This document shows positions 5,446 to 28,310 of a stretch of 64,000 nt of DNA, in pieces (the first letter of the stretch is position 1; every line of letters begins with the position of its first letter). Where the stretch lies: NCBI GenBank assembly GCA_902547755.1, contig CACCPA010000007.1:1-64000 (forward strand), given 5' to 3'. The notes under the pieces are model-generated. The model saw only the letters and a list, made by a program, of their open reading frames with translations. It was not told the DNA's origin and made no database searches. This DNA is from Halieaceae bacterium (GTDB lineage Bacteria > Pseudomonadota > Gammaproteobacteria > Pseudomonadales > Halieaceae). The position numbers and the translations under genes were made by a program.

Positions 5446-5484
5446 TAGTGTTGTTTTCACGATGGCCAAGGTGAGTAGTTTGTG

Positions 5485-6153
5485 ATGAGAGGGTGGTTAC
5501 CGCTCTTTACCTTCGTCGGAGCGTTGATAACGCTTTTGATGGCTGGTCGTCTCGTAGCGGACTATTTTGGTATCGAGCTGACGTTCGACTCAGTTCATGA
5601 GTTTCGCGATTGGATTGATTCCATAGGCTGGTGGGGCCCGTTAGCTTACGTGGTTCTTGTGGTCATTCGGTTGTTTCTGGGCCTCTCTACACACGTCGTG
5701 CTCACGCTGGGGGGCGTAGCGTTTGGACTAACCGAAGCCATTATTTGGGGAGGCGTAGGGCTGACGCTATCCGGCGTTGTCCAATACGGACTGGGGTACT
5801 ACCTCGGCAGTCATTGGGTCACCAAGCGACTAGGCGACAAAAATGAGCGGCTGCAACGGATTTTGTCGCGCAGCGGGGTGCCTGCACTTTTCCTGATAAC
5901 CGTCCATCCGTTGGGCCCACAAAGCCCGATGACCATCGTGGCCGGGGCTGTGCAGTTCCCGTTTACGAAATTTGTCGTGACCATGATGCTAGCCTCGCCG
6001 ATTAGAGCCAGCATTTACGCTGTTCTTGGCGGCGCTGTGCTCGAGTTCGATCTATGGCTGATCACACAGATCACGGTGGGTTGCGTCGTCGTAATGATAT
6101 TGCCCTTTCTGCACCGTAAAACCCGGCGGCTACTACTGGGTATGGACGCTTAG
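5485..6153 (+). CDS. TVP38/TMEM64 (VTT/SNARE-associated domain) membrane protein
   Basis: A 222-residue inner membrane protein of the DedA-like VTT superfamily. It has an N-terminal helix (about 5-25), hydrophobic spans at about 50-70, 72-95, 100-120, 165-180 and 185-205, and the family-typical segments GGVAFGL and HPLGPQSP in the re-entrant region. Family members are implicated in lipid or ion flux and envelope integrity. A GTG three bases earlier (5482) could also start the frame. The next gene follows after 18 nt and may be co-transcribed. Confidence 0.85.
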   Translation: MRGWLPLFTFVGALITLLMAGRLVADYFGIELTFDSVHEFRDWIDSIGWWGPLAYVVLVVIRLFLGLSTHVVLTLGGVAFGLTEAIIWGGVGLTLSGVVQYGLGYYLGSHWVTKRLGDKNERLQRILSRSGVPALFLITVHPLGPQSPMTIVAGAVQFPFTKFVVTMMLASPIRASIYAVLGGAVLEFDLWLITQITVGCVVVMILPFLHRKTRRLLLGMDA

Positions 6154-6171
6154 TAGGGGGCCCGTGTTTCG

Positions 6172-6468
6172 ATGGTAAAGCTCGCCGATTTATCTGAGTA
6201 CATTGCGGTTGCGTTGCTCATTTGGGCCGGCCTGCGAGTCCGGAAGAATACGGCGGCCCTTGGGTTGTTGTGCGGTGCCTGGGGCTTCTCGCTCTGCCTT
6301 CACTACCGAGCATGGGCGTGGCGCTTTGAGGACGTCATGACAGGCAGCGCAACGCCAGTGGTCGAGACAACCATGTTCGTGTTGACCTACACCGCGCCGA
6401 TCTCGATCATCTCGTTTATCATTACGCTGGTGCTTTGTATGCCAGCTGCGCGAAACCACGATAGCTAG
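6172..6468 (+). CDS. Small membrane protein of unknown function
   Basis: A 98-residue protein with hydrophobic segments at about 9-23, 28-44 and 66-90, so two or three membrane spans are likely. I recognise no family. It lies 18 nt after the TVP38-type gene with GGGGG upstream as a possible ribosome binding site, which suggests a shared transcript and a membrane-related role. Codon pattern is ordinary and the start is ATG. Confidence 0.6.
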   Translation: MVKLADLSEYIAVALLIWAGLRVRKNTAALGLLCGAWGFSLCLHYRAWAWRFEDVMTGSATPVVETTMFVLTYTAPISIISFIITLVLCMPAARNHDS

Positions 6469-6660
6469 TGATAACGCACATGCGGGATCTATACCTCGGC
6501 GCTTCTGTGGGGCATTGCGCAGCCACGTTGCGGCCTTTACCTTTAGTTGCTAACTCGCCTTAATTGTCGTCTCCCACCCAGGTGCCAAAATCTATAAAAG
6601 GCTGTTGTCTGACCCGCAATGAGATAGTCTTGTTTTTCCAACGTAAATAAATGATAACGA

Positions 6661-6672
6661 GGCAACGTTGCC
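6661..6672. promoter_or_regulatory. Perfect 12-bp palindrome GGCAACGTTGCC
   Basis: A perfect palindrome with a central CG lies 21 nt upstream of the ATG of the molybdopterin oxidoreductase. The shape is like LacI-family half-sites meeting at a CpG. No regulator gene is next to it, so it is only a candidate operator. Confidence 0.35.
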
Positions 6673-6693
6673 CAAAACACTCGGAGATTAATC

Positions 6694-8940
6694 ATGTCTA
6701 ACGAAGAATGGATGACCAGCGCATGCATCCTCTGTGAGCTGAACTGTGGCATCAAAGTTCAGACTGGCGGAGAAAATGGTCGCGAGATTGTGCGTATTCG
6801 CGGGGACGAGGATCACCCTGCTTCGAAGGGCTATCTCTGTCAAAAGGCGTCGGGGCTGAATCACTATCAGAACGGTAAGGACCGAATAACATCGCCTTTG
6901 CGACGCAAGCCAGACGGTACCTTCGAAGTCATCGATTGGGACACCGCGACCCGCGAGATCATGGAGCGCTTCGCCGCCATTCGTGACACGCACGGCGGTG
7001 ACAAAATCTTTTATTACGGTGGCGGCGGTCAGGGGAATCACTTGCCCGGCGCCTACTCGAGTGCGACCCGCTCAGTGCTTGGTAGCGTTTACCGCTCAAG
7101 TGCTTTGGCGCAGGAGAAGACTGGTGAATTCTGGGTCAACGGTCAAATGTTCGGATCCATGGTCAAAGGCGACTTCCACCATTGTGATGTCGCGTTTTTC
7201 CTTGGAAAGAACCCCTGGCATACGCACGGTATCCCCAGAGCACGTGTATTCTTGCGCGACTTCGCAAAGGACCCCGGCAAAACCATGATTGTTGTCGATC
7301 CAGTGGTCACGGAGACGGCGAAAATGGCCGATATTCACCTGCGAGTGAAGCCGGGAACGGATGCGTGGATGCTCGCGGCGATGGTGGCCATGCTAGTTCA
7401 AGACGAGCGCTACGCGTCAGCCTGGGTTGAAGAGCACACCCAAGGAATTGAAGACATCAAGAAAGCCTTTGGCGCCATTTCAGTCGCAGATTACTGCGCG
7501 CACGCGGGTCTAGCTGTTGAAGAAGTCAGCGCAGCGGTAGACGCCATTGCGAATGCCAAGGGCATGGCTATGTTCGAGGACTTGGGAGTTCAGATGAACC
7601 ACCACTCGACACTTATTAGTTACCTCGAAAAATTGGTTTGGGTATTGTGTGGGCACTTCGGCAAGGAGGGTGGCCACTACGTCCCCGCTTATCTGCAAAA
7701 TATAGCGGGCAGCGGACGCAGCTCACGCAAGTCACCCGTTGTGAAGGCGCCCATTATCAGCGGCATGATTCCCTGTAACGTCATTGCCGATGAGATTCTC
7801 ACGGATCATCCGGATCGCTACCGAGCCATGATCATCGAGTCGGCTAATCCGGTGCATTCATTAGCTGATAGCAATCGGATGCGTAAGGCACTCCGCTCGA
7901 TGGAGCTGGTTGTTGCGATCGATATCGCCATGACTGAAACCGCCCGGGAGGCCGACTACGTTTTGCCTGCCTCTACGCAGTTCGAGAAGTGGGAGGCAAC
8001 CTTCTTTAACTTCGAATTCCCCGAAAATTATTTCCACTTGCGCAAGCCCTTGTTCGAACCATTGGGTGAGTCGCTGTCTGAGGCAGAGATTCACGCGCGC
8101 CTCGTTGAGGCTGCTGGGGTGATGCCAACCGAGTTGGTTGATGAGCTGCGCGGCTTGTTGAAAGAAGAAGGTCGTGGCGCATTCCGCGAACGGTTTATGC
8201 AGGCCATGGCTGAGGATGTCATGGTGTCCAAATTGGCCCCCGTCATTCTATACCGAACGCTTGGCGAAGTGCTGCCTGAGGGGGCAAAAGAGGGCGCCGT
8301 CATGTGGCCGCTAGCGCTCGGTTTTGCCATGCGGGACAGCGCGAGTTTGGCGCGTGCCGGCTACGAGGGTGACCCCATCACGCAGGCCGATAAGCTCTTC
8401 GATGCCATCATTGCCGGGCACTCCGGTGTTGTGTTCTCGCGAGATGATATGTCGACGGCGTGGGAGAGAATGGGACAGGAGGAAGGCATTCAGCTAGCCC
8501 TCCCCAGCTTGTTGGATGAGCTCACCGTTCTAGAAGCGGGGCCTATTGACCGTTCAAATTCCGATTTCCCCTTTGCCTTGAGCGCGGGAGAGCGTCGCGA
8601 CTATTCCGCGAATACTATTTATCGTGACTTCGGCTGGCGGCGTAAAGACCCCGATGGGTCTTTGCGTATTAACCCAGATGATGCTGCCAACCTCGGTATT
8701 GAAACAGGCGATCAAGCGCGGATTGTGACGGCAGTCGGTTCAGCGATGGCGCGAGTTGAAGTAACTGACCGTATGCTGCCGGGTCACATTGCGATACCGA
8801 ACGGATTTGGCCTTGATAATGAGGATGGAACTCGATCAGGTGTTGCACCCAATGAGCTAACCTCGCTCTCCGATTGCGATAAATTCGCAGGCACGCCGCA
8901 CCATAAATTTGTGCCTGCGCGTATTGAGGCAGTGGCTTAG
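6694..8940 (+). CDS. Molybdopterin oxidoreductase (DMSO reductase superfamily)
   Basis: A 748-residue Mo- or W-bis-MGD enzyme. The N-terminal [4Fe-4S] site is C11-x2-C14-x3-C18 with the fourth cysteine C49 in KGYLCQKA. The central molybdopterin domains include GGGGQGNH and [11 protein letters not shown], and the C-terminal dinucleotide-binding domain runs from about 630 with [17 protein letters not shown] and PNGFGLDN. There is no Tat or Sec signal, so it acts in the cytosol. No electron-transfer subunit or cofactor-chaperone gene is adjacent, and the substrate cannot be read from the sequence. GGAG precedes the ATG at 6694. Its stop lies 43 nt before the GalT start. Confidence 0.9.
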
Positions 8941-18040: not shown

Positions 18041-19108
18041 CTAGCTCGAGAGCCCGGGGATTTCGCAGAACGTATCGGCTTCGACCTTGACGCTAATAGC
18101 TGAGTTGGCGTGCGCGCCGACGCACCATGATGGCATGACCATCGAATACACACCTGAGCCGCCGGCCTGCAAAATCAAGATTTGTTCTGGTCCCTTGAAT
18201 GCCATGCGGTCTTGAGGATCGGGCCCTGCAAATTGGCTGAACAAGCGCTTAACGATGCTCGCTTCGACAAAGCTGCGCTGGTATAGCTCCTGAGCGATGT
18301 CCTCACGCGTGAGTCCAGCCCCATGCAAAATGGCACTGTGTTCGGGGTTCAATACCACCGTTGCGCATCCACCTGTAAGCGTACCGTTGTTACTGGGCGG
18401 GTTAGCTAAGCCCATAGCTAGGAGTTCAAGTAGCGACTTGTAGCTATTGGGATCATCGCCGTCACCGGCGAAGATAACCGAGTGAGGTGCCTCTGAACCC
18501 AGCACCGTAACCACACTGTCGTCCGCATCGAAACCACGACTCACATGGAGCGGTGTGAAGGGACTGTTTTCTTCATCTTCAGCCAAACAGAAGGTGAACT
18601 TACCTGGATGACCGAGCAGCGCCATGTCGGAACTACCCGGTCGTGCCTTACCTATGTTAATCATAGTCAGCCGGAGGGCTCGCCCGATGGTGGCGTTGGC
18701 ACGATGACCTGGACCGAGGGCGCCTGTACCCGACGCGATCGGACCGCAGGTATGTCGTGCTGGCCCATTAACGATAATTAAGGGCGCCGTGCAGTGCGTT
18801 GTAGCCTGCATTTCAGTGAGATCGAACTCGGGGTCGATCACTGCTTTCACCGCCGCGACGACCACCGGCATGTAGTCCGGCAGACAGCCGGCCATAACCG
18901 CTGCAATCGCTACTTTTTCAACGGTTGCGATGCCGTGTCCCGGTCCCATGGTGCCCAACATCATGTCCGCTTCGAGCCCTGATGCCAGAACCATTCGATT
19001 GACGCGCTCGGCTGTGGGGATGACGACTGGAAGGCCATCTGTGCAGCCGAGGCGATGAAGTTCTTCCAGTGCTGCCTCTTCGTCTCGCGCGGCTAGGGTA
19101 TTACTCAC
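18041..19108 (-). CDS. Conserved protein coupled to the UGSC selenoprotein, function unknown
   Basis: A 355-residue cytosolic protein with no signal peptide. I do not recognise a named domain. It opens with EELHRLGCTDGLPVVIPT, a segment I associate with genes that accompany UGSC-family proteins, and holds conserved-looking cysteines in THCTAPLI, HTCGPIASG, GGCATVV and SWCVG. I prefer the GTG at 19108: its bases overlap the upstream stop as GTGAGTAA, and GAGG lies seven bases before it. A TTG at 19120 is possible. The overlap indicates translational coupling, so the two products probably form a complex or act in one redox reaction. Confidence 0.6.
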   Translation of the reverse strand: MSNTLAARDEEAALEELHRLGCTDGLPVVIPTAERVNRMVLASGLEADMMLGTMGPGHGIATVEKVAIAAVMAGCLPDYMPVVVAAVKAVIDPEFDLTEMQATTHCTAPLIIVNGPARHTCGPIASGTGALGPGHRANATIGRALRLTMINIGKARPGSSDMALLGHPGKFTFCLAEDEENSPFTPLHVSRGFDADDSVVTVLGSEAPHSVIFAGDGDDPNSYKSLLELLAMGLANPPSNNGTLTGGCATVVLNPEHSAILHGAGLTREDIAQELYQRSFVEASIVKRLFSQFAGPDPQDRMAFKGPEQILILQAGGSGVYSMVMPSWCVGAHANSAISVKVEADTFCEIPGLSS

Positions 19109-19637
19109 TGCTTGCCTCAAGCGCGGCTAGGATTTCCTGTGCTACGGAGTCTGCAACCGCGGTCATGTTGTTCGCCCCGGTTCCTGCGACGGGATGCGGT
19201 AGCTGAACTCTGGGTGCCCCGGGCATACCCAGTGATTCAGCGACAAAATTGCCTTGCGCCCAGAACTCCTCAGTAACCAGTGCTACCGAAGGTATGCCAA
19301 GTTTGGCGAGGTTTATGCCGTCACGCACGGTGCCGGTAGTGCAGGAGCCTCAGTGCCCGTAGGCGGCGATGACACCCACGCAATCACCACCAATCTCGCC
19401 GAGTAGTTTCTCGGGCGCAGCGATGGTGGCATTTCCTTTGTTATAGGCCTTGAGGTTGATCCCCGGTCGAAGCCGACCAATCGCTTTCCCAACCTCATCA
19501 AGGAAGGGCACGGAGTCGGGAAATCCGTTGGCCAGCAAACCAATGGTTGTGGCGCTCCCACCGTCGACCTTTACGGATAAATCGTACGGCATATTTTCAA
19601 TGCCAACGTCAGCGTCTGGATTTAAAAACTCAATCAT
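19101..19637 (-). CDS. UGSC-family (seleno)protein with in-frame UGA at Sec96
   Basis: A 178-residue protein read through one UGA. The ATG at 19637 has GAGGA seven bases upstream. The frame runs to codon 95 (GVIAAYGH), meets TGA at 19350-19352, and continues in the same frame as GSCTTGTVRDGINLAKLGIP, ending at 19103. The residues around the stop are exactly the U-G-S-C motif that names a known (seleno)protein family, so the UGA very likely encodes selenocysteine. The U-x2-C pair is a redox motif. A possible SECIS hairpin lies just downstream. A Sec-decoding system (selA, selB, selC, selD) must exist elsewhere in the genome; none is in this window. If it does not exist, the gene is broken at the worst possible residue. 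The substrate is unknown. Confidence 0.82.
19318..19336 (-). promoter_or_regulatory. Possible bacterial SECIS hairpin
   Basis: In the mRNA, CCG-G-CAC (nt 17-23, counting the U of UGA as 1) can pair with GUG-A-CGG (nt 29-35), with a G-A mismatch and the apical loop CGUGC (nt 24-28). The distance from the UGA and a G in the second loop position fit the bacterial SECIS pattern as I know it. The stem is short, and an alternative GCAC/GUGC pairing exists, so this is tentative. Confidence 0.35.
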
Positions 19638-19767
19638 GGGCGATCCTCTGAAATCACTACTGTTATCGCCAAGAACGCCCGTGACTGTCAAGAGCGGCGT
19701 TGAATTATGTAGTTCGCTGGCATGAGTTTTGACCCGTACAATAAAGGCTCGAGATGAGGGAAGACTA

Positions 19768-20793: not shown

Positions 20794-20816
20794 CAAAAAA
20801 AATGAGAGAGGTGAGA

Positions 20817-21563
20817 ATGCGAATAAGACAAGTTGCCCTTGCGGCCTCAGATTTGGAAAAGACCGACGCGACATTGCGTCGTTTACTGGGCTGTGATCAG
20901 TCCTACGCGGATCCAGAGATCATCTACTTCGGGCTAGACAATAGACTGTACACATTGGGTGACTGTTTCCTCGAAGTTGTCAGCCCAGTGCAGCCCAATA
21001 CGGCCGCCGGTCGTTTTCTTGATCGCCGCGGTGGTGACTGCGGTTACATGGTCATTGTGCAGGTCGAGAATCTGGCTCAGGAGCAAGAGCGTTTGGCGGA
21101 TACTGCCATACGCACGGTGTTTGCTGATGACCGCGGAAATGCGAAAGCCATTCACCTGCACCCCAAGGATGTTCCCGGTGCGATTCCTTCACTCGATGAA
21201 ATGAGGCCTCCCGAGTCTTGGTTGTGGGCCGGTGATGGCTGGGAGCAGCGCGCGGGGTGCTATGCTCGTGGCATCCTCGCGGTGGAAATAAGATCGCCCG
21301 ACCCAAAAGCGACGGGACAATGCTGGGCCGAAGCCTACGGCATTGAGCTAATGCCGGCAGGCAATGGCTGGCGCTTGGAAATGGGTGAAACAGAAATACG
21401 CTTCTCTCACGATTCGACGGCCGTTGAACCGGCGCTCATGGCAATTGATGTTGACGCTGTCGATCTTGATGCCATCTGCGCCGCTGCTGATGGTCTAGGT
21501 CTCGAGCGCGACGGTCATGTTGTTAGTGTCTGTGGCATGGCCTTTAACTTTCTCTCACCCTAA
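20817..21563 (+). CDS. VOC (glyoxalase-like) family protein
   Basis: A 248-residue protein that begins IRQVALAASDLEKTDATLRRLLG, the typical vicinal-oxygen-chelate opening, and has a second weaker repeat from about residue 140 (GILAVEIRSPDPKATGQCW). It is likely a metal-dependent isomerase, dioxygenase or lyase; the metal ligands are not all clear and the substrate is unknown. Both the ATG at 20802 and that at 20817 are in frame; the latter has AGAGG just upstream. The enoyl-CoA hydratase gene follows after 28 nt and should be co-transcribed. Direct repeats lie upstream. Confidence 0.75.
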   Translation: MRIRQVALAASDLEKTDATLRRLLGCDQSYADPEIIYFGLDNRLYTLGDCFLEVVSPVQPNTAAGRFLDRRGGDCGYMVIVQVENLAQEQERLADTAIRTVFADDRGNAKAIHLHPKDVPGAIPSLDEMRPPESWLWAGDGWEQRAGCYARGILAVEIRSPDPKATGQCWAEAYGIELMPAGNGWRLEMGETEIRFSHDSTAVEPALMAIDVDAVDLDAICAAADGLGLERDGHVVSVCGMAFNFLSP

Positions 21564-21591
21564 TTTTCTCTAACAAGTACCGGGAGGCGAT

Positions 21592-22419
21592 ATGAATCAA
21601 GGAATGATCGATACAGGAACAGACCACTTACTTGCCAACCTCACTGAGGGCGTATTGACGCTGACCTTTAATCGTCCGGAGGCACGTAATGCCCTGTCGG
21701 GAGATTTGCTTCAAGCCCTCGGGGCTCAGCTCAGTGATGCAGAGATTAATCCTGATGTGCGATGCGTGGTGGTAACCGGTAGTGGCAACGCGTTTTGCGC
21801 GGGTGGCGACGTCAAGGCCATGTCCGATGTGAATACCAAGGGGGCCGCCAGTCCTCTGGAGATACTGATACACCGGCAGCGATTGAAGCAGCGCTCAACC
21901 AGTGGTCGGCTCAATAAAATGCCTAAACCGACGCTCGCTGTTATCGCGGGTCCCGCTGCAGGCGCGGGCTTGTCTATCGCGCTGGCCTGCGATCTCCGGA
22001 TTATGTCGTCCACGGCTTTCATGACAACTGCGTTTGCCAAAGTCGGTTTCTCCGGTGATTACGGTGGCACCTTGTTCATGTCACAGCTTATCGGCACAGC
22101 AAAAGCGCGAGAGCTGTATTTCCTTTCCGAGCGCATAGGGGCCGAAGAGGCCGAGCGGCTTGGTTTGACCAACTGGGTCGTTGCGCCCGAGGACCTAGAG
22201 CAACGCGCTACAGAAATTGCTCAGAAGCTAGCGAGTGGTCCGACTGTGGCATTCAGTTACATGAAGGAAAATTTGGCGCGAGCACTGACATCGGCTGATG
22301 TCCACGATTGCTTGGACCTAGAAGCGTCGCACCACATCCATTGTGGGGGAACGGCTGATCACAAAAACGCGGTTGAAGCATTCATTGAGAAGCGCGCACC
22401 GGTCTTCGAGGGGAAATAG
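21592..22419 (+). CDS. Enoyl-CoA hydratase/isomerase family protein
   Basis: A 275-residue crotonase-fold enzyme acting on acyl-CoA thioesters. It shows NRPEARNALS (about 25-34), the oxyanion-hole segment FCAGGDVKAM (about 68-77), and the second AGPAAGAGLSIALACDLRI (about 120-138). The usual hydratase glutamates are not obvious in FSGDYGGTLF, so an isomerase or other crotonase reaction is possible. GGGAGG precedes the ATG. It follows the VOC gene closely and the exported sulfatase comes next after 120 nt. Confidence 0.9.
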   Translation: MNQGMIDTGTDHLLANLTEGVLTLTFNRPEARNALSGDLLQALGAQLSDAEINPDVRCVVVTGSGNAFCAGGDVKAMSDVNTKGAASPLEILIHRQRLKQRSTSGRLNKMPKPTLAVIAGPAAGAGLSIALACDLRIMSSTAFMTTAFAKVGFSGDYGGTLFMSQLIGTAKARELYFLSERIGAEEAERLGLTNWVVAPEDLEQRATEIAQKLASGPTVAFSYMKENLARALTSADVHDCLDLEASHHIHCGGTADHKNAVEAFIEKRAPVFEGK

Positions 22420-22446
22420 GGCGAAAGCTTGAATTTGACAAGAAGT

Positions 22447-22471
22447 GCAGCCGTCTGGGGCCGACAGCTGC
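22447..22471 (+). terminator. Weak hairpin after the enoyl-CoA hydratase gene
   Basis: GCAGC-C-GTC pairs with GAC-A-GCTGC around the loop TGGGGCC, with one C-A mismatch, and is followed by TTT only. It may attenuate transcription before the sulfatase gene. The short T run makes it a poor intrinsic terminator. Confidence 0.35.
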
Positions 22472-22539
22472 TTTAAACAACGAACTGACGGAGAGCTTAT
22501 CGCAAACGTCCGATATTGTTTGACTTTGAGGGATCACTG

Positions 22540-23976
22540 ATGGGACTTCTACAGAAATCTTTGGTTGTGTTTCTAGCGCTCACCGCAGCCGCGCCATTGT
22601 GCGCGGGAACTATGGTCGTCAGTAGTGACCGTCAGGCTTATCCGAATATCTTGATAATCTTGGTTGATGACCTCGGTTGGCATGATGTGGGTTACCTCAA
22701 TCCGGCTGTTGGCACCCCACACATCGACGCGCTGGCCGAGAGTGGTGTTAGGTTGGACCAATTTTATGCCAATCCAACGTGTTCTCCGTCACGCGCATCG
22801 CTACTGACGGGCTTATTTTCAAGATCTCATGGTGTTCACGCACCGGTGACTCACACCTCGGAAAAGGGGTTGCCCATAGAACTCCCGCTACTACCTCAGC
22901 TCTTGTCAGAGGTAGGCTATAGCACACATTTAGTCGGTAAATGGCATCTCGGCTCTAGTGATCCCCGGTTTTTACCTACAGCGCGCGGCTTTGATTCGTT
23001 TTATGGTCATTTGAATGGCGGCATTGGTTACTTTGACCACATATTTTCCGGTGGTTTGGATTGGCAGCGGAATGGAGTGACTATTCGCGAGGACGGACAC
23101 GCCTCCTCGTTACTAGCGGCCGAGGCTCGCCGAATCGTCGAGTCCCAGCCTACGGAGCAACCCTTTTTCATGTTGTTAGCCTTCAATGCGCCGCACACGC
23201 CATTGGAGGAGCCCGACGGCTCCGGTCGAGAGCACAGCGGTCGCGAGACACTCGTAAGAATGGTAGGTCATCTCGATAGTGAGATAGGGTCTGTGTTGAA
23301 TGTTATTGATCACAAAGGTTTGCGAGAAGACACGTTGATAATGTTCGTAAGTGATAACGGCGGTTCGGCTCCAAAGCCTTGGTTGTTCGAGTTTCTTATA
23401 CCTCCACTACGAGATGGCTACAGTGATAATGGCCCACTTCGCCAGGGCAAAGGATCTGTCTTTGAGGGAGGGATTCGTGTGCCGTCAGTCGTATCATGGC
23501 CCGGAACAGTTGCGGGCGCATCCATCAACCGCTCCCCGTTACACCTTGCTGATGTAATGCCTACCTTGTTAGACATTCTTAATATTGAGACTGGTGCCTT
23601 CGATGGGGAGAGCTTTCGTCAAGTCTTAAGCGGTGAGACGAAATCTCGCGAGCGGCCGATTCATGTAGCGATTGCTGGCAGTAAGGCGATGATCGATTGG
23701 CCATGGAAGGTTGTGCAGGAGGCATCGCTGCCAATAGTGCCCACGTTTCTTCAGCGCGACTCTTGGTACTTGTTTAACCTTGAAAATGATGAGGGCGAGT
23801 TAAATGATCTCGGACAGGAGGCGCCCGAGATCTTGCGGCGTATGAGAGCGCGTCTGGAATCACAGCCAAGTCGAAATGAGGTTGTCTTTGATATGAATCA
23901 GCCTTGGGATACATTTGGTGGGGAGGAAACGCGTGAACCTTGGGCAGAGGTGACCGCTAATTCAGCCGAGAAATAA
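22540..23976 (+). CDS. Exported sulfatase (type I, formylglycine)
   Basis: A 478-residue alkaline-phosphatase-fold sulfatase that would hydrolyse a sulfate ester in the periplasm. The signal peptide spans about residues 1-22. NILIILVDDLGWHDVGY (about 36-52) carries the Asp metal ligands, and CSPSRASLLTG gives the C-x-P-S-R formylglycine site at C81. KWHLG and a later DNGG hold further active-site residues. The ATG at 22540 follows GAGGGA; the TTG at 22516 lacks a ribosome binding site. A formylglycine-generating enzyme is needed and is not in the window. The ring-cleavage operon starts 75 nt after its stop. Confidence 0.92.
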   Translation: MGLLQKSLVVFLALTAAAPLCAGTMVVSSDRQAYPNILIILVDDLGWHDVGYLNPAVGTPHIDALAESGVRLDQFYANPTCSPSRASLLTGLFSRSHGVHAPVTHTSEKGLPIELPLLPQLLSEVGYSTHLVGKWHLGSSDPRFLPTARGFDSFYGHLNGGIGYFDHIFSGGLDWQRNGVTIREDGHASSLLAAEARRIVESQPTEQPFFMLLAFNAPHTPLEEPDGSGREHSGRETLVRMVGHLDSEIGSVLNVIDHKGLREDTLIMFVSDNGGSAPKPWLFEFLIPPLRDGYSDNGPLRQGKGSVFEGGIRVPSVVSWPGTVAGASINRSPLHLADVMPTLLDILNIETGAFDGESFRQVLSGETKSRERPIHVAIAGSKAMIDWPWKVVQEASLPIVPTFLQRDSWYLFNLENDEGELNDLGQEAPEILRRMRARLESQPSRNEVVFDMNQPWDTFGGEETREPWAEVTANSAEK

Positions 23977-24007
23977 AAACAACTCACCTAGATAAAAGTA
24001 ATGCGTG

Positions 24008-24027
24008 ATAGTTAATATTTAAACTAT
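24008..24027. promoter_or_regulatory. AT-rich inverted repeat before the aromatic operon
   Basis: ATAGTT at 24008-24013 and AACTAT at 24022-24027 are inverted across 8 nt, 24 nt upstream of the first operon gene. This is a candidate operator or promoter element. Confidence 0.3.
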
Positions 24028-24051
24028 TAGGCCCTAAAAAAAGGGGGACAT

Positions 24052-24987
24052 ATGAGCCACGTGAATGCTACACGGCTGTCTCAGGTGAACTTCAGGTCGC
24101 CCGACCTCGATCAGATGCAAAATTTTCTAACCGAATTTGGACTCTTGCTTGGCAGTCGAGATGCGCAGGTTCTTCGCATGTCGGGTCACGGCGATTCTGA
24201 TTGTATTCATCTCACCGAGTTGGGGGAGCCCGCATTCGTTGGTTTCGGACTTGAAGTGGCTGATGATGATGCCCTAGATCATCTTGCGTTTAAGACCGGA
24301 AAAAAAGTTGATGACACAAAGCACAAAAGAACGCTGTTCCTCTCTGACCCCAATGGCTACGAGATAGCGGTAACCGCAGAGAGCCCTGAGACCAGGACTC
24401 CGAGCGAACATTCTGCTCCCAAGATCAATTATCCAGATGTCACAAACAGAATCTCCGAGACCATGCGTCGTTTGAGTGGTCCTTCACACGTGCTGCGCCT
24501 TGGCCATGTCGTGCTCAACGTAGCGAGTTTCCGAGAGTCAGAATCCTGGTACAAGTCACACTTTGGCTTTTTGACGTCTGACGAAATCGAGTTGGAGCCC
24601 GGGGTAAGTGTTGGCGCCTTTATGCGTTTGAATATTGGGAATACAGCCACTGATCATCACTCGCTCTTCCTTTTGGAAGCACCGGGCGATGCGTCGTTCA
24701 ACCATGCTGCGTTTGAGGTGTCCGATGTGGACGATTTGATGGTGGGCCACGATCACCTGCGTCAAAACGGACGTGAGCACTCGTGGGGGGTTGGACGACA
24801 TATTTTGGGGAGCCAAGTCTTTGATTATTGGAAAGATCCTTGGGGACATGAGCTCGAGCACTTTAGTGATGGTGACCGATTTGTCGCGTCTAACCGTCCA
24901 AATGTTGCGACGCTCGATGATTTGCTGGGTGTTCAATGGGGTGATATTCACCCCTTAATGAGAGCGGCTGAGGAGATTGAGTTATGA
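24052..24987 (+). CDS. Extradiol ring-cleavage dioxygenase (VOC, two-module)
   Basis: A 311-residue type I extradiol dioxygenase, cleaving a catechol next to its hydroxyls with O2 and Fe(II). Two VOC modules are seen, residues about 7-108 and 145-270. The metal ligands expected in the second module are visible: His in RLGHVVLN, His in SFNHAAFEV and Glu in WGHELEHF. AGGGGGA precedes the ATG at 24052. The next gene overlaps the stop as ATGA. Members act on catechol, biphenyl-diol or homoprotocatechuate; the exact substrate is open. Confidence 0.87.
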   Translation: MSHVNATRLSQVNFRSPDLDQMQNFLTEFGLLLGSRDAQVLRMSGHGDSDCIHLTELGEPAFVGFGLEVADDDALDHLAFKTGKKVDDTKHKRTLFLSDPNGYEIAVTAESPETRTPSEHSAPKINYPDVTNRISETMRRLSGPSHVLRLGHVVLNVASFRESESWYKSHFGFLTSDEIELEPGVSVGAFMRLNIGNTATDHHSLFLLEAPGDASFNHAAFEVSDVDDLMVGHDHLRQNGREHSWGVGRHILGSQVFDYWKDPWGHELEHFSDGDRFVASNRPNVATLDDLLGVQWGDIHPLMRAAEEIEL

Positions 24988-25820
24988 AATTCGCAAGGTT
25001 CTTGCACGATGCGAAGCCTAGATTGGGCGTGGTTAAAGGGCATCAACTGTTTCCATTGAGCGACGGTCACAGCATACAGGCGATCGCCGCTGATTGGCCT
25101 GCCGTTCAATCCAAAGTGGAGAGCGACGGGATGGCAGAGGGCATTGATCTGGATGATGTGACACTACTCGCGCCTGTTGCTCGACCCGGAAAAATCTTCG
25201 CTGTTGGTTTGAACTACCGTGACCATATTGAAGAGTCGAATATGGAGGTGCCTGAGCGGCAGGTATGGTTCACAAAGGCGGTCACTTCTATCAACGGTCC
25301 CTACGATAATGTGTTGATACCAAAGGTCTCTAATCTCGTTGACTACGAAGCTGAGTTGGTGGCGGTAATAGGTAAATCGGGCAAATGTATCTCTGTAGAA
25401 GACGCCCCGAATCATGTGTTTGGGTATTGTGTAGGCAATGACTTTACCGAGCGCGCGTGGCAGTTTCGGAGTCCACAGTGGAGTTTAGGTAAAAGCTTTG
25501 ATACCCATGCTCCGATTGGTCCATGGATCACGACAGCTGACGAATTGGTCGATCCTCACACACTGACGATTTCGTGCTTCGTAAATGGCGAGCGTCGGCA
25601 GTACTCGAATACAGAACATCTCGTGTTCACGATCTGGGACATGATTTCCGAGTTAAGTCAGGCCATGACGCTCGAGCCCGGTGATCTGATTTTTACCGGC
25701 ACGCCCGGAGGTATTGGTGCTGCAATGGACCCTATGCAGTTTTTGAAAGAGGGCGATCTGGTGAAAACGGAAATCAGCGGCCTCGGATATATCGAGAACA
25801 CGCTTACTCAAGAGCACTAA
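24984..25820 (+). CDS. Fumarylacetoacetate hydrolase (FAH) family enzyme
   Basis: A 278-residue FAH-fold enzyme, which hydrolyses or decarboxylates dicarbonyl products of ring cleavage. The typical GKIFAVGLNYRDHIEE is at about 73-88, and the metal ligands are in DYEAELVAVIG and GNDFTERAWQ. FTGTPGGIG is near the C-terminus. It overlaps the preceding gene by 4 nt, and the flavin hydroxylase GTG follows after one base. In meta-cleavage pathways such enzymes act after the dioxygenase, which fits. Confidence 0.92.
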   Translation: MKFARFLHDAKPRLGVVKGHQLFPLSDGHSIQAIAADWPAVQSKVESDGMAEGIDLDDVTLLAPVARPGKIFAVGLNYRDHIEESNMEVPERQVWFTKAVTSINGPYDNVLIPKVSNLVDYEAELVAVIGKSGKCISVEDAPNHVFGYCVGNDFTERAWQFRSPQWSLGKSFDTHAPIGPWITTADELVDPHTLTISCFVNGERRQYSNTEHLVFTIWDMISELSQAMTLEPGDLIFTGTPGGIGAAMDPMQFLKEGDLVKTEISGLGYIENTLTQEH

Positions 25821-25821
25821 A

Positions 25822-27315
25822 GTGACGGCGACCTGTGATTTTGACGTCGTCGTCGTGGGTGCAGGCCCGGTGGGGCTTGTCGCAGCGCTTTTGCTCGCCA
25901 AACACGGCATTTCGGTGTTGCTCCTTGAAAAGGAGCGATCCATATTTCCGTTGCCTCGAGCGGCCCACATTGATCACGAGATCATGCGAATTTTTCAATC
26001 GATCGGCGTGGCTGATGACGTAGCCTCGTCTTCTGAGGTTTCTACACGCTATGAGTTTTTGAATGTGTCAGGCGATGTGTTGATGAGATTCGATACGGGA
26101 AGGGCTGCTGCGCTCAGTGGCTGGCCTCCGTCGAACATGATACATCAGCCATCTATAGAACACGTGCTGAGAGCTCGAGTGGCTGAATGTGATTCTATTG
26201 ATACTCGCTATGGCACCGCCTATCGACATCACGAGACATGTGGTGAGGTCGTCACCGTTCACTTCGATACTCAGGGTAAGGCATCACAGGCGTGCTGTCG
26301 TTTCCTACTAGGTTGTGACGGTGCAAATAGTGCCGTGCGGGCGAATTCCGGTCTGTCCCTCGTCGATCTTGGATTTTCTGAGCGCTGGCTCGTCATTGAT
26401 ACGAAGGTAATCGATTCATCTCGATTGCCTCGACACAATCTGCAAATATGTGACCCAGAAAGGCCAACGACCAGTGTTCGAATGGGTGCGGGACGACACC
26501 GCTGGGAGTTTATGCTGAAGGCCGAGGAGGACGAAGACAGCGTATCGGCACCGGCATTTGTGGCAAATCTGTTAGCAAGTTGGGACGTCGATGGTGCGGT
26601 TGAGCTAGAGCGAACGGCCACATACACGTTTGAGGCAAGGGTTGCCAATGATTGGATGCAAGATCGAGTCTTGATTGCGGGAGATGCGGCACATCTGATG
26701 CCTCCCTTTGCGGGCCAAGGCCTTTGCTCAGGGATCAGAGATGTCGAGAATCTAACATGGAAGCTAGGCGCAATTTTGGCGGGGCGTGCTAGTACCTCTT
26801 TACTCTTTAGTTACCAGACAGAGCGTGAGCCACATGTTAGAGCGATGATCGATCTTGCGGTCATGATGGGCAAAGTGGTGTGCGTGACTGACCCTGATTT
26901 GGCCTTAGCTCGTGACAAAAATTTGATCGAAACAAGGCGAGCCAGCGGCGATGCCTCTGGCGCAATACCGAATCCCAAGCTAGGCACGGGATTGTTGCAG
27001 GCAAAAAGCAATATTGCCGGAGAGTTGTTTCCCCAGTTTACTCATAAGGGAAGTCGTTCAGACGATTTATTCGGGCACGGTGCGTGGCTTATTGGTGAGT
27101 CAATTGGTATCGATGGAAATACGTTGGGCGCTGCTGGCGTAAGCATTCCATCACTCTCTTACTTCTCGCCTCTGGTATCTCAATGGCTAGACGATAAGGG
27201 TTATAACGCGGTCTTGGTTCGTCCTGATAGAGTTATTTTCGGCGGAGGAAATGCCGCTGAGTTAATTACCGCGTACGCGGATGGCCTGTACCAAGAGGCT
27301 AGGGTGGTGGCTTGA
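25822..27315 (+). CDS. FAD-dependent aromatic hydroxylase (MhpA/PheA-like)
   Basis: A 497-residue class A flavoprotein monooxygenase using NAD(P)H and O2 to hydroxylate a phenolic ring, cytosolic. The FAD dinucleotide motif is G13-A-G15-P-V-G18. The DG motif GCDGANSAVR is near 159-168, and the second FAD motif is G287-D288 in AGDAAHLMPPFAGQGLC. The C-terminal thioredoxin-like tail of this group is present (GHGAWLIGESIGIDG onward). It starts with GTG one base after the FAH stop and ends overlapping the next start as TGATG. It would make the catechol for the extradiol enzyme. Confidence 0.9.
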   Translation: MTATCDFDVVVVGAGPVGLVAALLLAKHGISVLLLEKERSIFPLPRAAHIDHEIMRIFQSIGVADDVASSSEVSTRYEFLNVSGDVLMRFDTGRAAALSGWPPSNMIHQPSIEHVLRARVAECDSIDTRYGTAYRHHETCGEVVTVHFDTQGKASQACCRFLLGCDGANSAVRANSGLSLVDLGFSERWLVIDTKVIDSSRLPRHNLQICDPERPTTSVRMGAGRHRWEFMLKAEEDEDSVSAPAFVANLLASWDVDGAVELERTATYTFEARVANDWMQDRVLIAGDAAHLMPPFAGQGLCSGIRDVENLTWKLGAILAGRASTSLLFSYQTEREPHVRAMIDLAVMMGKVVCVTDPDLALARDKNLIETRRASGDASGAIPNPKLGTGLLQAKSNIAGELFPQFTHKGSRSDDLFGHGAWLIGESIGIDGNTLGAAGVSIPSLSYFSPLVSQWLDDKGYNAVLVRPDRVIFGGGNAAELITAYADGLYQEARVVA

Positions 27316-28310
27316 TGATAAAGGGATTCGTGATCCTTTTGGCTTCGCTTATATCCATTGGATTTGTCCGTCACAGATACGGTGCAAGGCGGGTTATTGC
27401 GGGGGTTAGACACGGTGGGCGAGTGCCTCACGAGGCTGAGTTCGAATTGTATGCAAATGGTTTTTCGCATTGTTCACGCAAAACGATGCTGGCTCTGGCG
27501 GAGCACGGTATCGCCTTCACCTACAGGCATGTAGACCTAATTGAAACGGGTCGTTACGGAACTCTCGATCAGGATTACTTGCGAATTAATCCGAACGGAT
27601 TGATACCGGCGCTGGTTCACTCTGGTGTTCCCATTATCGATTCTGACGAGATTGTTAACTATGTGACGACTCAACTGGGACGCCAATTAGAGAGCGCCAA
27701 TGGCTTGGAAATACCGGAACGTCATCAGTTTTGGCTTGAAAAGTGCCGTCTAGATAGTCTCGATCCAATGGAAGCTATCGGTACTCACATAGGGGCTTGC
27801 ATACCGGGACTGACACTGCCGCTTTTTGCAGTAATGATGCAATCCGTCAGGTTTTCTGCACTGCTACGCGGCTTGGCTCTTCACAATGACGGAAAACGAG
27901 TCATGTTTTTCGTTATGGCGCGACTATTAGGGCCGGAGCGAGTCGTGACCGTAAAGCCTATTCGCACGTTAATTGAGAGGAGCAGGAGCGCTGTCGCAGT
28001 GCATTTGCGAGAGCTCGAACGACATTTGGCCGAGAGCGAAGGACCTTATCTGACAGGGTCAGAATTTGGTCTCGGCGACGCCGCTCTGTCTGTCGTTTAC
28101 CTTAGGTTAGAGGAAGCAGGATGGCTTGATATTCTGTGCCTGCACAGTGAATTTCCTTTAATTCGGAATCACTACGATACGTTGCGCACCCGGCGTAGCT
28201 GGGAGGTGCTGGAAGATGCCTACCCGGCGAGGGTGGCACAGGCGGCAGGGCAACTACGCGAGCTCATTGATAATAAGAATAGCAGGATGACTGACCTTTA
28301 TCGTTCGTAG
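27315..28310 (+). CDS. Glutathione S-transferase-like protein with N-terminal hydrophobic segment
   Basis: A 331-residue protein. Residues 1-17 are hydrophobic and could be a membrane anchor. The thioredoxin-like GST domain begins at about 45 with ELYANGFSHCSRKTMLALAE, followed by NPNGLIPALV and IIDSDEIVNYV, and a helical C-terminal domain to about 310 containing LTGSEFGLGDAALSV. The start is the ATG overlapping the hydroxylase stop (TGATG). In aromatic operons GSTs may isomerise ring-cleavage products; maleylacetoacetate or maleylpyruvate isomerase activity is possible but unproven. Confidence 0.8.
   Translation: MIKGFVILLASLISIGFVRHRYGARRVIAGVRHGGRVPHEAEFELYANGFSHCSRKTMLALAEHGIAFTYRHVDLIETGRYGTLDQDYLRINPNGLIPALVHSGVPIIDSDEIVNYVTTQLGRQLESANGLEIPERHQFWLEKCRLDSLDPMEAIGTHIGACIPGLTLPLFAVMMQSVRFSALLRGLALHNDGKRVMFFVMARLLGPERVVTVKPIRTLIERSRSAVAVHLRELERHLAESEGPYLTGSEFGLGDAALSVVYLRLEEAGWLDILCLHSEFPLIRNHYDTLRTRRSWEVLEDAYPARVAQAAGQLRELIDNKNSRMTDLYRS

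What the first reader, a model, noticed from the sequence alone, without database searches (positions are those of the whole stretch)
19101..19637. Selenoprotein of the UGSC family, UGA at the U of the motif
Two reading frames in the same phase are joined by one TGA at 19350-19352. Read through, the text is YGH-U-GSC-TTGTVRDGIN. The stop falls exactly where the known UGSC family has selenocysteine, and the flanks are conserved style on both sides with a single start (19637, good ribosome binding site) and a single end. Standard gene callers would split or truncate it. It implies Sec decoding in an aerobic marine-type bacterium.
Basis: partly seen in the sequence, partly recalled or inferred. 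Interest (0 to 1): 0.85.

Follow-up and report, generated by a model that had tools for sequence, protein, structure and literature searches.

The report
Marine selenoprotein with near-constant partner gene
This gene really does use an in-frame stop codon to insert selenocysteine, which makes it a member of an already described aquatic selenoprotein family (UGSC), and it travels with an unnamed partner gene with which it probably forms one redox enzyme.

Summary
Confirmed. The frame 19637-19101 (-) is open except for one TGA (19350-19352) at the U of UGSC. The protein passes Pfam UGSC (133 bits; cut-off 25) but not NCBIfam's stricter cut-off. The TGA is no error: 18 of 19 UGSC matches in 58 genomes (own plus 57 relatives) hold it (the other is cut by a contig end), as do 80 of 80 kept loci elsewhere. 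The own genome carries selA-selB-tRNA-Sec; selD was not found in this 72%-complete draft, but close relatives have it. Six codons after the TGA are 98-100% invariant at synonymous sites (Arg CGT 62 of 62; 16% elsewhere) and form a SECIS-like hairpin.

A known selenoprotein family, so a new member of a known kind. Thioredoxin reductase lies in the same cluster in 3 of 17 annotated plasmid regions. The AlphaFold model looks flavodoxin-like (tentative), not thioredoxin-like as suggested in print. Best reading: a thioredoxin-fed two-subunit selenoenzyme; substrate unknown.

The parts
19101..19637 (-). UGSC-family selenoprotein gene, 178 aa, Sec at residue 96, Cys at 99
19350..19352 (-). in-frame TGA read as selenocysteine
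19318..19336 (-). SECIS-like hairpin CCG-G-CAC-CGUGC-GUG-A-CGG directly downstream of the TGA; apical loop at 19325-19329
19644..19649 (-). AGAGGA, ribosome-binding-site-like
   Evidence: similar purine-rich stretches before the start in several relatives
18041..19108 (-). partner gene, 355 aa, GTG start overlapping the UGSC stop by 8 nt; no Pfam or NCBIfam family

Best explanation
The locus encodes a two-subunit redox selenoenzyme. Step 1 (shown computationally): SelB and tRNA-Sec, directed by the hairpin just after the UGA, insert Sec at residue 96 of UGSC. Step 2 (inferred from gene overlap, co-occurrence and fusion): UGSC and the downstream partner are made together by coupled translation and form one complex. 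Step 3 (inferred from motif and model): Sec96 and Cys99 sit at the start of a helix, at the C-terminal edge of a flavodoxin-like sheet, and cycle between selenol/thiol and selenenylsulfide, while the partner supplies substrate binding and further conserved Cys and His residues. Step 4 (inferred from Cys-type homologues whose clusters carry trxB, once with trxA): electrons come from the thioredoxin system. The substrate is probably a small imported organic acid or CoA-linked metabolite; which one is unknown. Confidence: Sec insertion about 0.97; physical two-subunit enzyme about 0.75; thioredoxin-fed redox enzyme about 0.55.
For: frame, family; tRNA-Sec, SelB, SelA; TGA conserved; 24 with 19 (17 of 18 UGSC genomes have selA, against 4 of 40 others; Fisher p 5e-10, relatedness ignored); 69 (selA in 48 of 49 genomes searched); 48, 56, 74 (synonymous invariance and hairpin); 32 with 63 (UGSC and partner in the same 5 of 398 genomes; p 1.2e-11, relatedness ignored); 34, 115 (partner downstream on the same strand in 80 of 80); 82, 115 (overlap, see below); 91, 93, 112 (UGSC-partner fusion in Variovorax); 84 with 96 (all 15 plasmid records with UGSC are among the 24 with the partner); 89, 90, 98, 111 (trxB over cut-off in three clusters, with trxA in one); 40 (invariant H18, H167, H188, C174, C348 of the partner); 49 (model).
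Against: selD is missing from the own draft. The window-type Sec loci have no conserved trxA or trxB: only the partner recurs (a gene that reads like trxB, not searched against a library, in 6 of 80 loci on the opposite strand). Only 3 of 17 annotated plasmid regions have a trxB over cut-off, and in one of them it lies three genes away. Fused relatives in Sporomusa and Vibrio have a weak UGSC-like domain (14.6 and 16.4 bits) without Sec or Cys at the motif (DMGTS), so the partner may work without this redox centre. Haladaptatus has the partner without a detected UGSC. The fold assignment is tentative (TM below 0.5). No complex, cofactor or activity was tested.
Confidence: 0.6

Rival explanations
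1. The TGA is a sequencing error or the mark of a decayed gene.
For: The genome is a draft at 72% completeness. A broken Cys-type copy exists in G331.
Against: TGA in 80 of 80 kept loci from separate assemblies labelled as several phyla, with the protein intact on both sides; Sec genes present; synonymous invariance downstream.
Confidence: 0.01
2. UGSC is an ordinary thiol oxidoreductase or peroxidase of thioredoxin-like fold, as suggested in the GOS paper, and the partner is incidental.
For: UxxC motif; statement in PMC2398784 (passages).
Against: The model alternates five strands and helices without a strand hairpin, with Sec after strand 3; none of the 50 Foldseek rows shown is described as a thioredoxin-family protein and the best are flavodoxin-like, though with TM only about 0.47. 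The partner is next to UGSC in 80 of 80 loci and fused to it in Variovorax.
Confidence: 0.12
3. The pair works like glycine or proline reductase: a Sec subunit plus a second subunit that reductively cleaves a C-X bond, fed by thioredoxin. This is a more specific form of the best explanation.
For: UxxC at a helix start followed by a GIP stretch, a second subunit, and trxB-trxA in the Arthrobacter cluster parallel those systems, whose layout I recall.
Against: No relation to a local GRDB-like protein by hhalign (only 4 closely related GRDB-like rows); PF07355 is not among the Pfam matches; substrate unknown.
Confidence: 0.25
4. The partner is the enzyme and UGSC is a regulatory or assembly subunit whose Sec is a redox switch.
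For: Sporomusa and Vibrio fusions lack Sec and Cys at the motif of a weak UGSC-like domain; Haladaptatus has the partner without a detected UGSC; two partner copies flank UGSC in 4 of 8 haloarchaeal plasmid regions.
Against: Residues 96 and 99 are invariant in the 62-row alignment and codon 96 is TGA in 80 of 80 loci, which would be costly for an accessory role.
Confidence: 0.15

Closest known systems
UGSC-containing selenoprotein family (Pfam PF24696; NCBIfam NF041046; GOS selenoproteome, PMC2398784)
   Same: Same motif, Sec position and Pfam family; listed in print as a major aquatic selenoprotein family (255 Sec and 21 Cys sequences in Table 2 of that paper, passage seen).
   Different: Scores below the NCBIfam equivalog cut-off. 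The constant partner, the synonymous block and the flavodoxin-like model were not in the passages I read; the paper mentions a UGSC fusion to an unidentified domain 'Unknown_1' that may be the partner, whose figure I could not see.
Proline reductase PrdB / glycine reductase GrdB (Pfam PF07355 GRDB)
   Same: UxxC selenoproteins (PrdB as UxxC in the table seen) that work with a second subunit and thioredoxin (recalled).
   Different: No Pfam match and no profile similarity to a local GRDB-like protein (shallow profile).
Thioredoxin-fold UxxC selenoproteins (Trx-like, Prx-like)
   Same: UxxC redox motif.
   Different: Order of strands and helices and position of Sec differ in the model.

Membership tests
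UGSC family (PF24696) | profile match over Pfam cut-off | tested here: met
   133.1 bits vs 25; all 62 rows of A2 match the family
UGSC equivalog (NF041046) | score over NCBI's cut-off of 125 | tested here: not met
   104.8 bits
UGSC family (PF24696) | U/C-G-S-C motif with Sec or Cys at the first position | tested here: met
   TGA-GSC; TGA in 80 of 80 kept loci; of 16 plasmid copies 12 have Cys, 3 have TGA, and Neorhizobium reads CSTC
bacterial selenoprotein | selA, selB, tRNA-Sec in the genome | tested here: met
bacterial selenoprotein | selD in the genome | tested here: inconclusive
   not over cut-off in the 72%-complete draft; present in close relatives G016, G017
bacterial selenoprotein | SECIS hairpin just downstream of UGA with G in the apical loop | tested here: met
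   hairpin and synonymous invariance; G of the loop 21 nt after the UGA; six pairs in 78 of 80. Against: stability alone is not special, no covariation to test, no Rfam match. The G-in-loop rule is recalled, with support in legends seen; SelB binding not testable
bacterial selenoprotein | Se in the purified protein | not testable with these tools
   needs mass spectrometry or 75Se
thioredoxin fold | Trx order of strands and helices (recalled) | tested here: not met
   AlphaFold model, pLDDT 90.9, alternating strands and helices; prediction only; Foldseek best matches flavodoxin-like with TM below 0.5
GRDB (PF07355) | profile match | tested here: not met
   hhalign E 0.16 (shallow profile)

The most novel reading that the evidence does not exclude
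UGSC plus its unnamed partner is a new class of thioredoxin-fed, two-subunit selenoenzyme on a flavodoxin-like scaffold, working in marine bacteria and, in its Cys form, in haloarchaea and soil bacteria, for catabolism of an unidentified organic substrate; a functional counterpart of the glycine and proline reductases without detectable sequence relation to them.
Probability: 0.35. Interest if true: 0.75.

Novelty: new member of a known kind. Interest (0 to 1): 0.5.

Why it matters
UGSC is listed among the major selenoprotein families in aquatic metagenomes (PMC2398784, and 8.2% of selenoprotein genes in PMC9402790; passages seen), and a 2026 review that lists it says that the functions of such families remain largely uncharacterised (PMC13188914, passage seen). 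The constant partner, the natural fusion and the thioredoxin clusters turn 'function unknown' into a testable two-protein assay, and point to organisms with Cys forms in which selenium is not needed.

Tried and rejected
Rfam scan of the window at gathering threshold: nothing; no tRNA in the window. Viral contigs: 34 stretches matched a pattern, none a relative. PDB by sequence for UGSC and partner, single and profile: no credible match. Pfam and NCBIfam for 52 partner sequences: only weak scattered matches. Foldseek for the partner: class I fumarase at E 3e-4 but TM 0.26 and rmsd about 17, not accepted, although a class I fumarase-like gene follows the partner in 8 of 80 loci (Pfam fumarase in 5 of the 90 neighbours scanned). 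UGSC versus GRDB-like by hhalign: no signal. GRDB-like genes lie about 7-14 kb from UGSC in G005, G027, G030 and G035 but also occur in genomes without UGSC (G008, G013, G020) and sit in general synteny, so I did not count them. Other conserved neighbours: the next best cluster is in 19 of 80 loci. Pfam on 90 nearby genes (of 134 picked) shows acyl-CoA dehydrogenase in 8, short-chain dehydrogenase in 6, fumarase in 5: no single pathway (25 of 70 families shown). SECIS by stability alone is not special: 12% of synonymous random versions fold as well, and 353 of 5000 allow the six pairs. The pairs cannot be tested by covariation because the sequence hardly varies, so the case rests on the invariance. 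Hairpins in divergent Sec copies are weak evidence, since some haloarchaeal Cys copies can form similar stems. Repeat, promoter and terminator scans gave nothing useful. A literature search for Halieaceae with selenoproteins listed off-topic papers; UGSC with 'flavodoxin-like fold' gave none.

Full report
Observation. The minus-strand frame 19637-19101 is open except for one TGA at 19350-19352. The gene starts at ATG 19637 with AGAGGA upstream; relatives start at the same Met. Table-11 ORFs split the gene.

Family. The protein matches Pfam UGSC at 133.1 bits (cut-off 25). NCBIfam's UGSC equivalog matches at 104.8 bits, below its cut-off of 125. UGSC is a published selenoprotein family: passages of PMC2398784 list 255 Sec sequences and 21 Cys homologues, and passages of PMC9402790, PMC5029168, PMC9312934, PMC13188914 and PMC7539508 name it too. 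PMC5330540 mentions UGSC-motif selenoproteins in Geodermatophilaceae whose tRNA-Sec has anticodon CUA. All were seen as passages only.

Is the TGA real? The own genome (draft, 53 contigs, 72% complete) carries selA (577.5 bits), selB (417 bits) and tRNA-Sec (71 bits), consecutive on contig C25. selD gave only 26.5 bits, but the close relatives G016 and G017 (99% identical partner) have it over cut-off, so the draft probably lacks that piece. Of 58 genomes (own plus 57 relatives) 18 hold a UGSC match, 19 matches in all: 18 matches have exactly one TGA, and one (G003) is a fragment that runs into the contig end before the motif. Of these 18 genomes 17 have selA, against 4 of the 40 others (Fisher p 5e-10, relatedness ignored); the exception, G026, is 62% complete. 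In genome contigs 193 relatives were found and the best 80 kept: 80 of 80 have TGA. One of the two search patterns spelled Cys at that position, which would favour Cys forms; the 113 dropped, more distant relatives were not seen. The loci are labelled mostly as Gammaproteobacteria, with Actinomycetota (Acidimicrobiales), Myxococcota and Thermoanaerobaculia. Of 50 genomes of these loci asked for, 49 were held and 48 have selA; the one without is the genome of L134.

Recoding signal. Over 62 aligned genes, codons 101-106 (Thr-Gly-Thr-Val-Arg-Asp) just after the TGA are 98-100% invariant among rows that keep the residue. No other degenerate codon among those listed there (residue kept in at least 85% of rows) exceeds 92%. 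Arg105 is CGT in 62 of 62, whereas CGT is 16% of Arg codons elsewhere in the same genes and conserved Arg143 uses six codons. In 80 sequences (window plus 79 of the 80 loci) the counts are GGC 80, CGT 80, GAC 80, second ACC 79, GTG 79, first ACC 76. The block can form CCG-G-CAC-CGUGC-GUG-A-CGG, with all six pairs in 78 of 80 and a G in the second loop position, 21 nt after the UGA. Stability alone is unremarkable (12% of synonymous random versions fold as well). The Cys-type copy in G331 uses other codons there. In seven divergent Sec copies examined (two identical in this stretch) a different stem of 6-8 pairs with a loop G 19 nt after the UGA is possible, but some haloarchaeal Cys copies can form such stems too, so I rest the case on the synonymous invariance.

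Partner. A 355-residue gene (18041-19108) overlaps the UGSC stop by 8 nt. A homologue follows UGSC on the same strand in 80 of 80 loci. If the start codon nearest to the UGSC stop is taken, 76 of 80 partner starts overlap that stop; this rule favours overlap, and by alignment alone homology begins before the end of the stop in 66 of 80 and within 50 nt after it in 13. The next most frequent neighbour is in 19 of 80. In 398 genomes drawn from the phylum, the own among them, UGSC and partner occur in the same five and in no other; one of the five UGSC copies (G331) is broken. In the 58 genomes the partner is in 17, all of them UGSC genomes; G003, with the cut UGSC fragment, is the exception. The order can be reversed (L035; G193, G197 and G365). 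In plasmids, all 15 records with UGSC are among the 24 with the partner. I fetched 19 of these 24: 16 have a recognisable UGSC beside or fused to the partner, two (Sporomusa, Vibrio) have a weak UGSC-like domain without Sec or Cys at the motif fused to it, and one (Haladaptatus) has none detected. Variovorax EBFNA2 has one 545-residue CDS with UGSC then partner. In Neorhizobium VafX2 a UGSC domain with CSTC and the start of the partner share one CDS, and more of the partner lies in another frame. In 4 of 8 haloarchaeal regions a partner copy lies on each side of UGSC. The partner has no Pfam or NCBIfam family.

Electron supply. In Arthrobacter ERGS1:01 the order is trxB-trxA-partner-UGSC on one strand, in Roseovarius THAF8 partner-UGSC-trxB, and in Variovorax SRS16 trxB is the third gene upstream of the partner. 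All three TrxB pass TIGR01292, and the TrxA passes TIGR01068. Two further TrxR-like proteins score below the cut-off (Variovorax EBFNA2, Haloterrigena). A tblastn with the Roseovarius TrxB finds 624 places in 7.3 Gb of plasmids; by my arithmetic the 19 stretches (217 kb in all) would hold about 0.02 by chance, against 3 seen among the 17 that carry annotation. The hypothesis was formed after seeing the data, and one query misses remote TrxB. Transporter subunits, CoA transferases, CoA lyases and dehydrogenases recur in these clusters, which suggests catabolism of an imported solute. The window-type Sec loci have no such conserved trx genes.

Fold. The AlphaFold model of UGSC (pLDDT 90.9) has strands 31-36, 61-66, 88-94, 117-122 and 143-146 alternating with helices, with Sec96 at the start of the helix after strand 3. 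The invariant stretches LANGFPDS, K67, GH-U-GSC and LPHP lie at the C-terminal ends of strands 1, 2, 3 and 5. Foldseek's best matches are flavodoxin-like (E 3.5e-4, TM about 0.47, rmsd above 5), so the fold class is tentative, but the order of elements does not support the thioredoxin-like fold suggested in PMC2398784. The partner model (pLDDT 85.5) has no convincing match.

Verdict. The additions are the partner, the synonymous block, the fusion and the thioredoxin link. One search listed eight papers with UGSC and selenoprotein; I saw passages of seven and only the listing of PMC7435645. None of the passages describes the partner, except perhaps as the unidentified 'Unknown_1' fusion of PMC2398784. 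Full texts and supplements were not read, so I do not claim that it is unpublished.

Noticed in passing
window 6150-6694: Close relatives (G005, G027, G030, G035) have a Cys-type GRDB-like gene of about 415 aa next to the homologue of 5482-6150; the window lacks it.
   Followed up: partly
L179 (Acidovorax sp. T1, conjugative IncP plasmid p2-T1): A Sec-type UGSC gene with partner on a conjugative plasmid; the partner stretch has no gene in the listed table.
   Followed up: no
L180:4435-5004 (Paracoccus ferrooxidans pFER4): UGSC with in-frame UGA annotated as two hypothetical proteins, with selB annotated about 3.3 kb beyond the partner: a split selenoprotein in a public record.
   Followed up: partly
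L176:4314-6038 and L178:4371-6056: Partner fused to a weak UGSC-like domain with DMGTS in place of U/C-GSC, near aconitase X and DUF126 genes: apparent loss of the redox residues.
   Followed up: partly
L170, L184, L185, L186: Haloarchaeal plasmids carry a partner copy on both sides of UGSC.
   Followed up: partly
L110, L112, L114, L117, L122, L125, L126, L129: Class I fumarase-like gene directly downstream of the partner in 8 of 80 loci, while Foldseek's weak best match for the partner is also class I fumarase.
   Followed up: partly
window 20802-28307: Run of same-strand genes: two glyoxalase-domain proteins, an enoyl-CoA hydratase-like protein, sulfatase, fumarylacetoacetate hydrolase and an FAD monooxygenase-like protein; looks like a degradation cluster (for four of them; the rest by eye).
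   Followed up: partly
L145/L148 (G331): Cys-type UGSC copy interrupted by a frame break and a TGA away from the motif.
   Followed up: no
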